A stretch of 64,000 nt of DNA from Taeniopygia guttata (Eukaryota > Chordata > Aves > Passeriformes > Estrildidae). The stretch lies in NCBI RefSeq assembly GCF_048771995.1, contig NC_133027.1:63115501-63179500 (forward strand). The letters run 5' to 3'. The position numbers and the translations under genes were made by a program. This document shows, piece by piece, positions 55,101 to 61,100 of this stretch (position 1 is its first letter; each line of letters begins with the position of its first letter). Below the pieces are notes generated by a model that was not told the DNA's origin, did no database searches, and saw only the letters and a program-made list of their open reading frames with translations.

Positions 55101-58100
55101 GGTTGTGGGTCTTGATCACAGATACATGCATTTATATAATCTTATGTAAATCTTACAGAGACACCACACAGGACAGAGCAGGACATGACAATAATTATAT
55201 AGAAATCCTTTCTTGTCTCTGATTGGAAAGGAACTGCTCTACCTTTTGGAATCTAAATAAAAGACCTTTTCTTCTAAGTGGAGCAAATGTCATAATTTTA
55301 CAACTTCATAGATAATTACTGTACAAGAACTTGAAATAAAGGCACCTGGAAAAATATTTGAAGTCAGTATTTTCCAATTTAAGTATGCATGCATTGGTTA
55401 CTATTCATGGAATGGTTGGAGTATTGTTCTTTCTTTACAATATGGAATTAATTATATGTATATTAAGATTGGTAAAAAAATTCCTTTACCATAAAACAGT
55501 AAAGAAGATGGTTTACTAGACACCTTCTTTGGTAAGCTATGATTAAATTTTTGATATGAGCAGAATGAACTTTGTTTTGATGTACTGTCTTTTTTAACTC
55601 TCCTGAGGAGGCACACAAATTTGGTGCATAGTTTAATTGGAAAATGAGCTTTAGATTATTATTACTGTGATAGTTTAAAAAAAGGATTAAAAATTAAGTC
55701 TTTGAAGAAGAAACTTGCACTTTGGGCAAATTGAAAATGCAAGACTTAGATGTTCTTTGTATGTATATATCTCTGCATAAACATGTATTCAATTTTAAAT
55801 CTATAATGTATCTTTTACATGTGCCATACAGATACACACATACAGAAACTGGGCATTAGATATACTCTCATAAACTCATATATAATTATAACCTTACTTA
55901 GAAAATTATGTATAGTGACAAAATCACCTTAACATAGGAATTTGCAAAGTATTTTCAATATCATAGACAGTAACTACAAACTAGGGGATAGCTTCAAGAT
56001 CTCCACCAGATGGTGACGCAAAGCATGTTTTAATGAGGTAAAAAAAAAAACCAAGAACTAATCTGCATATTAAAATACTCTCAGGAGACTGTAAATTAGA
56101 TAGCAAAAACTAAAACTTCTTTATCTCTCTTCAAATTAAACAGTTGAAATCCCACCTCAAAATGCTGAACGAAAAGAAAAAAAAAAAAGAGTATAAAATT
56201 GGTGAAAAGTAGCCAAAGAAAATTAAAAAAAATGGAAAAAAATAACCTGGAAAACAATGCTCCCTACCCCTGCCACCTACTACAAAAATATAATGACCGA
56301 TCAAATGTGAGTATATTTTAAAATTCTGTTTGGAAAATTATCCAAACACTTAGTTTTGAAAAATCTTCTATTTTTGAAAGTGAAATCCCCAAAACTGTGT
56401 CAGTAAAAAGCATTCATACACTCCCAAACAATAAACTGTCCTTAAATCATATAAAATACATGGAAACCAGTATATTATCCTCACAGTCTCATGAGAGCTG
56501 TTTTAGAGAAGTACACAAATATGAGAAATCACACATTAATGACATTTACTATGACTAAGATGTTACAAATTCCCTTCTACTGTAATTGTATTATTATTAT
56601 TCCAAAGCATCTTCATATGCTAAATGGTCCTACATCTAAAGGACGAAAGACAGCTACTTCTACATTCAGTCTACAAACTGAATATCTAATAGACAAGATG
56701 ATCTGGGTTTTTTTCTACATCTAACTTAGTGGCTCAACATACTGTAGGGGAACTCAGGTCGACACAGGCAGCCCAGCTCAGTGGAGAAGTCACACAAACA
56801 AGGCAAAAGGACTGCAGCAGAGCTAATAAGTTGTTTCAGTGGTGGGTAAGAGGTGCTGTTTTGGCTTGTCCCAGATGGTAAATTGGCCAAGGAATTAACA
56901 TGGGCCGAAACTGATGACTCATGGTATGTCACAGAAGAAAGTGATGTTTGGATCTGCATGAGAGAGTGATGGGTGGCTGCTGCAGTTGTTGTCAGAGTGC
57001 CTGTCGAGATGGTCTCTTTGTGCTGAATAAAAACTCGGCTATATGAAGATGGCAAAGGTACCACATAATTCATTATTGAACTTCTTGATGACTCCAGAAC
57101 AGAAGAGAGATTTGTAAGATGTCCATAATCAGCATTTTCAAAATCTGAGACATTAGCAGTAATGACAGATATCGCTTCTCTGTTCCTGCTAAAGGGTCCA
57201 TGCACCTCCCCTTCTGAATTCCATTCAGAAAGCCTCGGTAGGTTTGTTGATGTCAGAACAGCAAAATCCCTTATGTCTTTATTATTCTCAATGATTTCTT
57301 GTTCTACTGCCCAAAGAGAGTATCTTGAACTATCCACTTGATTTTCAATGGAGTTTTGTCCTGAAACAGTTAGATAATTTCTTGGTGTTTCTGTTGTTGG
57401 CAAGTTTAACTCTTCTACATCCCACTGAGGGAGCAGGCTTGGAGAAATTGTATCAAGGTGGTTCTGAAAACTTTGTGGGAGTGGAGGTGTGGAATAGCTG
57501 TTAGGAGCTACACTATCTCTGAATTTGGAGTCTGAATGAAGAAATTGCCTTAATTCCAAAGGCACTGGAAAAAAGTCAGAACTCATTGAACTGATGCTTT
57601 TTAAAAAAATACCTGCATCTTTTTGAACTTTACTTCTTGGTTTAACAATGGTATTTGTTATAGCATCATTCTCCAGAAGACTTTGAGACTGCGGTGTTCT
57701 GTGTGTTCTTGTACTGCTTATCAAACCCTTAACTATCCAAGTAATCTGAGTCCCAGGTGTACTGATCAAGAAAGGAGCTCGGCTATCCCTTAAACAAGAA
57801 GGCTGAGTTCCTGAATATGTTGGAAAGACAGAAACAGGCTGATGCTTATTGTTTAGGAAGGTCAAGTCAGTTTGATCACTTACTATGTCAGTTTGAATTT
57901 GCATGTGCAAACTATCTGTGGAATTTTCAAGCACCTGATCAAAAGGGCTTACCTGTGCCCATATAGAGGACTGAATGTAAGGTGCTTCCAGGGAAGGAAA
58001 AGGAAAATCAAAATAAAATTCACTGTTGGAAGTCACAGATAGGTTTGCAAAGTTCATTGTTGACTGCAATTGTGATATTGACTGGAGATTACTTTCTGAA

Positions 58101-61100
58101 ATTCTCTTTGAAATGCCTGGAATAAATGAACTAAAGATTTGTGTTTCCAAAGTTGATACATGAGTAGAAAAATTAATTACTTCAGCTCTGTGAGCTAAAA
58201 ATCTAATAGCAGGTGTTGGTTCAGAGATACTGTCAGACTTAACATATAAACTAATGGACAATCTCTTTGTTGGGGAAGAAAGCAGTTTATTAAATGACAG
58301 ACAGAAATTTTCTGATGGCTCCCCAGAAAACACTTGAGATGCTTCTTTTAAATAATGGGAAACAGTCCAGAAACTTGCTTTTAAAGAGGGGGATATATCT
58401 ACATAGTTTGTTGGAAAATCCAAGTAATCTGAGTCCCAGGAGTCAGCAACTGGATTCATGTTCTCTGACTCCAATATGGAAAAAGTTGACTCTTCATTTT
58501 CATTACTACCATGAAATGCATTCAAATTGCTCTCCAGTGCTCCATTTCTGAGGGTCTCACTTGGATTTTGAAAGTATAATGAATGCTGTAAATAATGAGA
58601 CCAGTAATTACTACTAGATATAAATATGCTGTGACTTTTCAAATATGTGTCAGTCAACAGCTGTTGATAAACAGGCAGGGTTGTTACAACATGCTTATAT
58701 GCTGAGCTCGTCCTGCCTGGTTCTACCAGAAATGATGAAAATGTTAATAGTTCTCTGCTGTGTCCTTGGACTGAATTTGTCAGCTGGCTGTCATGCATAA
58801 ATTTTGTGTATGATTTTTTCATGTTCTGAAAAACACTTGTTGGTTTTTCATGTAGAATCTCCACAGAGGTTAAATATGTAATGCCTCCTGAGTGATGCTC
58901 CTTAATGTGCACAGATTTTTTAAATTGAAATTCACTGTTTGCTGATAGTGTAGAAAATGTTTTTCTGTCAGCATTGCCTTCTCTAATTTCCAAGTAAAAA
59001 ATTTCAGGTACCAAGTCTAACAAATCTAACCTACTATTTTGGAATGGCTTCTCATCTGTAGGTGATACCGACAAGCTAGAAAGAAAATTATGTCTGTCTT
59101 GTTGAATATCAGAAGTGATATGGTGATGAAATACAGGCTCATTCCACCAGTTCACAGGCTCTGAGACATTGCTTGTATGCATGAAATTGTTTGTTTCGCT
59201 GTTCGAGGATGAAATCCACAGAGTTTCTTTTTTGTGTTCGTAAGCAGTGCCACTGCTGCTGCTGCTAACATGAGAGCGGAATGATGGCTCGAAGTCAGAA
59301 AGATGGAGCCTACTTGCCAAAGTCCTTGCTAGCTCTGTACAGGGATTTCTGCTCCAAAGAAGAGGAACTGCTGCATTCACAGGCGGCTCTGTAACTGCAT
59401 CTGCTGCACCAGAAGTACCATGGAATGGACTTCTAGAATAATTTAAAATATTTTCATTTGGCAACTGATTCATTACAGTATTATCTAGGTTGATGTTTTC
59501 TGTAAAAGCAGACACGATTTTGTTGCCGTTCTCCTCAGAAGAAGCTGGTATGGACAAAGTTGGAAGGAGCAAGCTGTATGGGTTTTTTCTCTCTGGGTTA
59601 TCATTGGCTGAATTTTTATTGAAATGCAGAGGCCTTTGTTTCACTGGCCAAATAATTGGGGTTGAGATAATTCCTATTGTTTTGATCCCTTCTATTTTAG
59701 ATTCTTGCTGCCTCTGTGGTCGTGAATGAGAAAATTCAGCTGAATGTCTCTTCATTCTGAAGATAACTGTAGCAGGAAGTCTGAATTCCTGCAGGTCTGT
59801 GTGTAGCAAGCCACAGAGTTAATAGATTCAAGAAAATACATGTAACTTAAATCTCTGTTCTTGGTCTAAAAATCAACTTACCAAGAGTGGAAAATGATGC
59901 CTTTTAGCTGAGTGAAAGTTTAATTTGCTTCTAACATAAGTGAACTTAGCTTATTGTCATAGTCTTTCTACTTTTTCTTGGGACTTTCAAAGCTAGAGAA
60001 AGAACTTCAATTGTCCCTTTTTTATTCATACTAATATTAATAAGATTTAGTTCATTCTGTCATCAAAAAAAAAACAGAGTTAACTGCTCATGGTGAACAT
60101 TTTTGAGTGGCTCCACAAAAAAGAAGCAAACACTACTTGGAAGAAATTTTAAATATTTTCTTCTTACTTCTACAGCTTATTAAAACCAAACAGTCTGGAT
60201 TCAGATAAATTCTTTCACATTATGCACTGTACTGCCTGATTGCCAATGTACAAGAAATATCTGCCAAGAGAAAAAATACTCCAAGAGTTTAAAATCCTAC
60301 AGTAAAAACTGATGGATTGGGGAAAAAAACCACCCAACCAAAAAAAAAGCAACTTAAAAACCAAACCACAAACCCCACCCAGATTCTAATTTATTTCTGT
60401 GGAGTACACTGAAAAAATAAATTAAAAAAAAATTATACATTTAAGCCTGTGATGAAAATTGGCAAAATCTATCTCTGTGTTTAACAACCAACTTTAACAA
60501 ACGAATAAATATTTTAGCAGCATTTCACAAAGTGATGCTCAGTCATTAGGAGACAGTGATATCACAGAATTTGAGACAGCCTCAAAAGAAATCCTGGCTT
60601 TATTCCTGTGCTAATAATAGGTTCTTTACTACCTTATTTTTTCCCTTAATCTTTCTAAATGAAAAGTAAACGATATCTGATACTGTCAACATTTTCCCTA
60701 GTAAAGTCTGATCCAGCTCTTCTTTAAGTCAGTGGAAAGATTTCTGTTGACTCAGTGGAAGTGGCTTTGCTCCATAGGAATGGTTCCACTTGGCTCCTGC
60801 GCCTGAGGAATGGCGAGGAACTAGTGAGGAACAGGCAATCCAAGCCTACTACCACTCTGGCTGTACAAGTGGGAGCTACACAATGTCTGACAATCTGCAG
60901 CCTTGAAATCCTTCAACAGCAGGGTTCTTTTCAGACCCTTTCTAAGCATCCCTCTCCCTTCCCTTATTCTTTGCAATGTAATGGGTTACACACACATTAA
61001 ATACAATGGGTGACACAAAGTTAATCCCTTTCACAGAAGACCCAGGCAAACACGAAACAAACACTGAGTTTGGTTCTGTTCTCAGTTACACCATTCTGAC

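What the first reader, a model, noticed from the sequence alone, without database searches (positions are those of the whole stretch)
56743..59796. Giant in-frame mucin-like cassette exon in a bird ADGRG6
A single open frame of 1,018 codons sits between the Thr/Pro linker exon and the first SEA exon. Its length is a multiple of three and its phase (1-1) fits both neighbours. Inclusion would add a Ser/Thr-rich stalk larger than the receptor's whole remaining ectodomain. The mammalian protein I know is about 1,200 residues and has no such segment. ADGRG4, a relative with a pentraxin-like domain, has a giant Ser/Thr exon, so this may be an ancestral exon lost in mammals. Alternatively it is a lineage-specific gain.
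Basis: partly seen in the sequence, partly recalled or inferred. Interest (0 to 1): 0.88.

Follow-up and report, generated by a model that had tools for sequence, protein, structure and literature searches.

The report
Sauropsid-wide giant stalk exon in ADGRG6
Birds, turtles and lizards carry in the receptor gene ADGRG6 a thousand-codon extra exon that would insert a long, probably floppy, fast-changing stalk with a likely cutting site just behind the ligand-binding head.

Summary
A 1,030-codon open frame lies at 59818-56726 (-); the exon 59796-56743 is 3,054 bp, phase 1-1, between ADGRG6 exon 6 and the first SEA exon. Simulated windows gave no frame above 215 codons. It is not confined to this bird: three searches gave 55 relatives; the 35 with a species name are birds, turtles or squamates, and 14 of 55 are spliced in frame into SEA. 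Public gene models thus already contain it.

It evolves faster than the rest (bird-turtle 43-47% against 86-88% for SEA-7TM). Its start is best conserved, with furin-like R-x-K-R in 23 of 25 aligned exons. It is only mildly Ser/Thr-rich (23%) and predicted unfolded, so "mucin-like" is overstated.

Predicted proteins show full inclusion, a 254-codon short form, and a read-through form ending past the donor, which would be secreted. Skipping fits the phase but was not seen here in a sauropsid protein. Best reading: an ancient spacer at the known alternative-splice site that untethers or releases the CUB-pentraxin head. No RNA, and no relatives' DNA, was available.

The parts
56743..59796 (-). 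Giant exon of ADGRG6, 1,018 codons, phase 1-1
   Evidence: open frame; splice sites; relatives; spliced relatives
61257..61340 (-). Exon 6, 28-aa Thr/Pro linker; its human and zebrafish counterparts are alternatively spliced
   Evidence: PMC6954182 passages give 28 aa in human, 23 aa in zebrafish
54186..54271 (-). Exon 7, start of the SEA domain
   Evidence: Pfam SEA_Gpr126 begins right after the giant exon in P0005 and P0027
59747..59758 (-). Codons 14-17 of the exon, R-M-K-R: conserved furin-like motif
   Evidence: coordinates; R-x-K-R in 23 of 25 aligned exons, Lys-Arg in 25 of 25
59627..59701 (-). Conserved block [25 protein letters not shown] (codons 33-57), best conserved part of the exon
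   Evidence: 15 of the 25 invariant positions lie in codons 33-55
59034..59035 (-). Internal alternative donor ATA|GTAGGT; its use gives a 254-codon form, phase 1-1
   Evidence: same junction (..FQK-S-GLFYRIS) in predicted proteins of 4 bird species, P0029, P0033, P0034, P0035
56744..56803 (-). C-terminal Cys block [20 protein letters not shown] (codons 999-1018)
   Evidence: C1012 invariant in 25 of 25
56726..56742 (-). Read-through tail S-M-L-S-H-stop beyond the donor (first codon shared with 56743); would end a secreted CUB-PTX-stalk form
   Evidence: equivalent endings in CUB-bearing models P0002, P0018, P0020, P0023, P0031, P0037, P0054
52635..52688 (-). SEA exon carrying another R-x-K-R (A-R-Q-K-R), counterpart of the mammalian SEA furin site
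   Evidence: (exon position; motif in 7 of 8 relatives checked); PMC6954182 passages for the human site

Best explanation
This is a genuine protein-coding exon of ADGRG6, present at least since the common ancestor of birds, turtles and squamates, and used in more than one way. It sits exactly where fish and mammals regulate ADGRG6 by including or skipping exon 6, between the disulfide loop and the SEA domain. Included in full, it inserts about 1,000 probably unfolded residues between the CUB-pentraxin head and the SEA-HormR-GAIN base. This would break the closed head-on-base conformation and give a very long, flexible, glycosylatable tether. A furin-like R-x-K-R site 14-17 residues into the insert would, if cut, release the head and leave a receptor with a new N-terminus close to the conserved block [17 protein letters not shown] weak donor would let some transcripts run on and stop a few codons later, giving a secreted head-plus-stalk form; an internal donor gives a quarter-length stalk. 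Shown by sequence: the exon, its frame, its conservation, the motifs. Shown only as predicted gene models: full, short and read-through forms. Inferred: skipping in sauropsids, cleavage, tether mechanics, secretion.
For: Frame and phase. 14 of 55 relatives join the exon to exon 7 at the predicted donor; 7 of these 14 also start directly after exon 6; P0011 (Bubo) has the giant exon with exon 6 left out. Open frame kept at 58-61% identity to finch in duck and emu and 35-41% in turtles, where neutral substitution alone left 0 of 1,000 simulated frames open at 0.1, 0.2 and 0.3 changes per site. Start block and R-x-K-R conserved (23 of 25). AlphaFold model without one confident residue: 0 of 1,030 at pLDDT 50 or more. 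Same internal donor in a passerine, pigeon, cuckoo and falcon. Read-through endings in 7 CUB-bearing models from passerine, parrot, duck, guineafowl, turtle, gecko and dragon lizard. Inserting only 23 residues here adds open conformations to the zebrafish ectodomain and changes cAMP signalling (PMC6954182 passages).
Against: No RNA read was seen; isoforms are automated models and may partly copy each other. No sauropsid protein without the exon was looked for, so skipping is assumed. No DNA of relatives could be read, so no dN/dS. Relatives came from protein collections, so broken copies would be under-represented. Mean identity to finch over 8 reptile sequences is only 0.295, which also fits weak constraint in the middle. 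Several models miss parts of the exon or end oddly (P0008, P0013, P0015, P0021 fit no class). R-x-K-R is a short motif; cleavage is untested. Low pLDDT with 26 sequences is a prediction, not proof of disorder.
Confidence: 0.65

Rival explanations
1. The exon is mainly a terminal exon of a short secreted ADGRG6 (CUB-pentraxin-stalk, ending just beyond the donor); joining to exon 7 is rare or an annotation habit, and the soluble form acts as a decoy or matrix-bound ligand trap.
For: Seven CUB-bearing predicted isoforms from birds, turtle and squamates end this way. The donor is weak, ACA|GTATGT (recalled consensus). In the named bird models that reach it (emu P0022 excepted), turtle P0031 and contig P0030 the frame closes within 5 codons of the donor.
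Against: 14 of 55 relatives are spliced on into the SEA domain. The exon keeps phase 1-1 and a length divisible by three. The only poly-A-like hexamers in the following intron are ATTAAA at 56034 and 55637, no AATAAA. Squamate tails run longer (9 residues or more), so the stop is not conserved there.
Confidence: 0.2
2. Passive, weakly constrained filler: an old expanded exon kept open but with no role beyond length, tolerated because it is usually skipped.
For: Giant-exon identity falls far faster than that of the rest; no Pfam domain, no solved relative, no confident fold.
Against: Start block, R-x-K-R and end cysteine conserved over sauropsids. Length stays at 1,000-1,075 codons in the 25 aligned exons. 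Frame kept open far beyond the neutral simulation.
Confidence: 0.15
3. An independent gene or transposon-derived frame inside the ADGRG6 intron, merged by annotation.
For: Some annotations list it as a separate uncharacterised locus, e.g. P0022 (Dromaius), P0043 (Haemorhous), P0055 (Zootoca).
Against: Splice phases fit both neighbours; the first residues follow the acceptor directly in CUB-bearing models; in searches of 5.8 billion proteins every named hit was sauropsid, most under the name ADGRG6.
Confidence: 0.03

Closest known systems
ADGRG6/GPR126 exon 6 alternative segment (+ss/-ss), human and zebrafish
   Same: Same receptor and same place between disulfide loop and SEA; alternative use; Ser/Thr-containing, glycosylatable linker; in-frame (PMC6954182 passages)
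   Different: 23-28 residues against 1,018; the giant exon is a further exon directly after exon 6 and brings a furin-like motif of its own
ADGRG4/GPR112 long stalk
   Same: Pentraxin-like head, very long Ser/Thr-containing stalk, then a predicted SEA and a HormR domain (PMC10687090 passages)
   Different: The ADGRG4 stalk scores 3.4 as mucin-like by a published algorithm, not run here; this exon is 23% Ser+Thr; no sequence relation found
Furin site in the SEA domain of human GPR126
   Same: R-x-K-R type site in the same receptor, between head and base (PMC6954182 passages)
   Different: The new site is upstream of SEA, in sequence predicted unfolded, so no SEA fold would hold the pieces together; the SEA motif is also present in 7 of 8 sauropsid proteins checked

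Membership tests
ADGRG6 (adhesion GPCR G6) | CUB, pentraxin-like, SEA, GAIN/GPS, 7TM in this order | tested here: met
   CUB, PTX and loop exons upstream in the own genome; SEA to 7TM exons in the window; Pfam order in P0005 and P0027
Cassette exon | Length a multiple of three, same phase on both sides | tested here: met
   3,054 bp, phase 1-1
Cassette exon | RNA with and without the exon | not testable with these tools
   Only predicted proteins with full, partial and read-through inclusion; no reads, and no sauropsid protein without the exon was sought
Mucin-like domain | Dense Ser/Thr/Pro, many O-glycosites, repeats | tested here: inconclusive
   Against: Ser+Thr 23.2%, Ser+Thr+Pro 29.5%, hydrophobics 30.7% against 31.4% in the rest; only scattered 2-3-copy repeats. 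For: best 50-residue window 42% Ser/Thr/Pro. No O-glycosite prediction
ADGRG4-type giant exon (common descent) | Detectable sequence relation | tested here: inconclusive
   No ADGRG4 among 36 hits at E <= 1; no direct comparison, since no ADGRG4 stalk sequence was at hand
Furin substrate | R-x-[KR]-R motif, conserved | tested here: met
   23 of 25 exons; the two others (P0030, P0053) are contig frames whose models start inside the motif
Furin substrate | Cleavage by furin | not testable with these tools
   Needs a cell assay

The most novel reading that the evidence does not exclude
In sauropsids ADGRG6 is a switchable two-product gene. One splice choice makes a plain receptor. The other makes a precursor that furin cuts at the start of the giant exon, freeing a soluble CUB-pentraxin signal and exposing a conserved new N-terminal region ([16 protein letters not shown]) on a thousand-residue tether, or, by read-through, secreting head and stalk entirely. 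Mammals lost, or never had, this layer.
Probability: 0.2. Interest if true: 0.8.

Novelty: new variant of a known kind. Interest (0 to 1): 0.6.

Why it matters
ADGRG6 acts in Schwann-cell myelination and inner-ear development (PMC11475505, abstract and passages) and in the placenta (PMC8589310, start of abstract), and its short linker splicing is studied in human and zebrafish. A whole amniote branch seems to have a far more drastic version of the same switch, which more than doubles the ectodomain and adds a second probable cutting site. It offers a natural experiment on whether head tethering, stalk length or head release sets the activity of an adhesion GPCR. It also warns that a bird ADGRG6 may not be a simple stand-in for the mammalian receptor. 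Seven full-text searches of an open-access library listed no paper that, by title or start of abstract, describes this exon; searches matched over 1,000 papers each, of which 20 and 12 were listed, and one search matched 39, of which 10 were listed. I saw passages of five papers, none whole.

Tried and rejected
Homology to the ADGRG4 stalk: no hit. Pfam and PDB matches to the exon: none. Paralogue check in the own genome: the one close 7TM paralogue (63%, C1, taken from recall to be ADGRG2) has no stretch related to the exon in 70 kb (best E 2.2) and no frame above 348 codons there. A whole-genome search with the exon itself did not complete. RNA families: none. Fold search was not run, because the model has no confident residue. 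Mammalian relic: not testable. In the conservation alignment I used 24 of 55 relatives plus the window, leaving out partial and near-duplicate ones; in the rate comparison 6 full-length proteins; in the structure alignment 25 relatives plus the window.
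Full report
What is there. The minus strand holds one open frame of 1,030 codons, 59818-56726, the only closed frame of 200 codons or more in the window. Inside it the exon 59796-56743 is bounded by GCTACACACAG|AC and TACA|GTATGT. It is 3,054 bp long. The upstream exon 61340-61257 ends with one base of a codon and the downstream exon at 54271 begins with two, so skipping or including the giant exon leaves the frame intact. Sixty simulated windows with the same trinucleotide statistics gave a longest frame of 215 codons.

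Which gene. The window lies at C4:63115501-63179500 of a 1.14-Gb genome. CUB, pentraxin and disulfide-loop exons lie upstream in order (on the window's scale 75772-75359, 69786-69160, 64470-64399; bounds are those of the matches), with a signal-peptide exon near 111540. The exon matches a Taeniopygia guttata protein (P0009) at 685 of 693 residues, so the window is probably from zebra finch or a very near relative.

Exon 6. In PMC6954182 (passages seen) exon 6 encodes 28 residues in human and 23 in zebrafish, is alternatively spliced, lies between the disulfide-stabilised loop and the SEA domain, and its inclusion adds open conformations of the ectodomain and changes signalling. The giant exon is therefore the next exon at the same switch point.

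Relatives. A search with the exon gave 36 proteins at E <= 1 among 6,172 candidates; a profile search gave 33 among 5,747; a search with the conserved start block of the turtle protein gave 26 among 36. Together these are 55 different proteins. Thirty-five carry a species name: 30 from birds (passerines, owls, falcons, parrots, pigeons, cuckoo, honeyguide, godwit, fulmar, duck, galliforms, emu), two from turtles, three from squamates. Twenty are unnamed contig frames. No mammal, amphibian, fish or ADGRG4 entry appeared among the named ones; absence is bounded by the word-based search and its length limits. Public gene models therefore already contain the exon, mostly under the name ADGRG6, sometimes as an uncharacterised locus.

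Selection. Between six full-length proteins the exon is 71-79% identical among birds (92% between the two owls) and 43-47% between birds and the turtle Caretta, against 93-96% (owls 99%) and 78-79% for the head and 96-98% (owls 99%) and 86-88% for SEA to 7TM. So it evolves fast. Still, the frame stays open: with neutral substitutions alone, 11 of 1,000 simulated copies stayed open at 0.05 changes per site and none at 0.1, 0.2 or 0.3. Because relatives were found as proteins, broken copies would be missed; dN/dS could not be computed.

Conserved parts. In 25 aligned exons (24 of the 55 relatives and the window) 25 positions are invariant, 18 of them among the first 71 residues. R-x-K-R, a furin-type motif, is present at residues 14-17 in 23 of 25; the other two models start inside it. 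The block around GIISTPI[IV]WPV follows. A Cys-containing end block closes the exon. Elsewhere the mean identity of eight reptile sequences to finch is low (0.295 over the whole exon, 0.49 and 0.59 in the first two blocks of 40). The SEA domain downstream has its own R-x-K-R in 7 of 8 proteins checked, the counterpart of the human furin site.

Nature of the segment. Ser+Thr is 23.2% (18.0% in the rest of the crow ectodomain), Pro 6.3%, hydrophobic residues about as common as elsewhere, best 50-residue window 42% Ser/Thr/Pro. There are 8 N-glycosylation sequons in finch and up to 20 in contig frame P0053. No Pfam or PDB match. AlphaFold with 26 sequences gave mean pLDDT 26.8 and no residue at 50 or more. 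It is better called a disordered, mildly Ser/Thr-rich stalk than a mucin domain.

Isoforms. Of the 55 proteins, 14 join the exon end to exon 7; four (Agelaius, Columba livia, Cuculus, Falco cherrug) leave it at the same internal donor, which in the window is ATA|GTAGGT at 59035/59034, and join exon 7. A loose pattern put 33 in a read-through class and left 4 unclassed; most of the 33 are single-exon frames that end at the first stop by construction and say nothing about transcripts. The telling ones are seven CUB-bearing models that run through the donor and stop soon after (P0002, P0018, P0020, P0023, P0031, P0037, P0054). One owl model (P0011) has the giant exon but not exon 6. No protein without the giant exon was sought, so skipping in sauropsids rests on phase and on the mammalian state. 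All isoforms are automated predictions.

How it may work. Inclusion separates head from base by a long flexible tether; the 23-residue exon 6 alone already allows open forms in zebrafish. Cutting at R-x-K-R would free the head, as no SEA fold spans that site. Reading through the donor would secrete head and stalk. The first step rests on analogy and a disorder prediction, the second on motif conservation, the third on gene models only.

Novelty. The receptor, the splice site and a long-stalk relative are known. A sauropsid-wide thousand-residue stalk exon with a conserved furin-like site was not described in anything I saw in seven answered full-text searches (listings, and passages of five papers: PMC6954182, PMC6667449, PMC10687090, PMC13197933, PMC11475505).

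Noticed in passing
window 57735-57760 and 58418-58443: A 26-base stretch occurs twice in the exon, 96% identical, read in different frames (around TPGTQITWI and [10 protein letters not shown]). A small local copy event or chance.
   Followed up: partly
own genome C1:100298072-100298800 (-), in L020: A 243-codon Ser/Thr/Pro-rich-looking open frame lies upstream, on the same strand, of the 7TM exons of the 63% paralogue. It might be a large stalk exon of bird ADGRG2 (name from recall).
   Followed up: no
window 41582-42024 (+): Overlapping open frames that look like a CR1-type LINE fragment (recognised from memory, no search made; frames).
   Followed up: no
own genome G000, 7TM search: Only one close 7TM paralogue (63%) among 12 matches; the others are at most 50% over a part. 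No clear ADGRG4: birds may lack it, or it was not among the scored candidates.
   Followed up: no
P0021 (Indicator indicator): Predicted junction leaves the exon near residue 935 (..[14 protein letters not shown]), a third possible internal donor.
   Followed up: no
P0026 (Gallus gallus isoform X2) and P0019 (Oxyura isoform X7): Models that begin inside or just before the giant exon, hinting at internal transcription starts or partial models.
   Followed up: no
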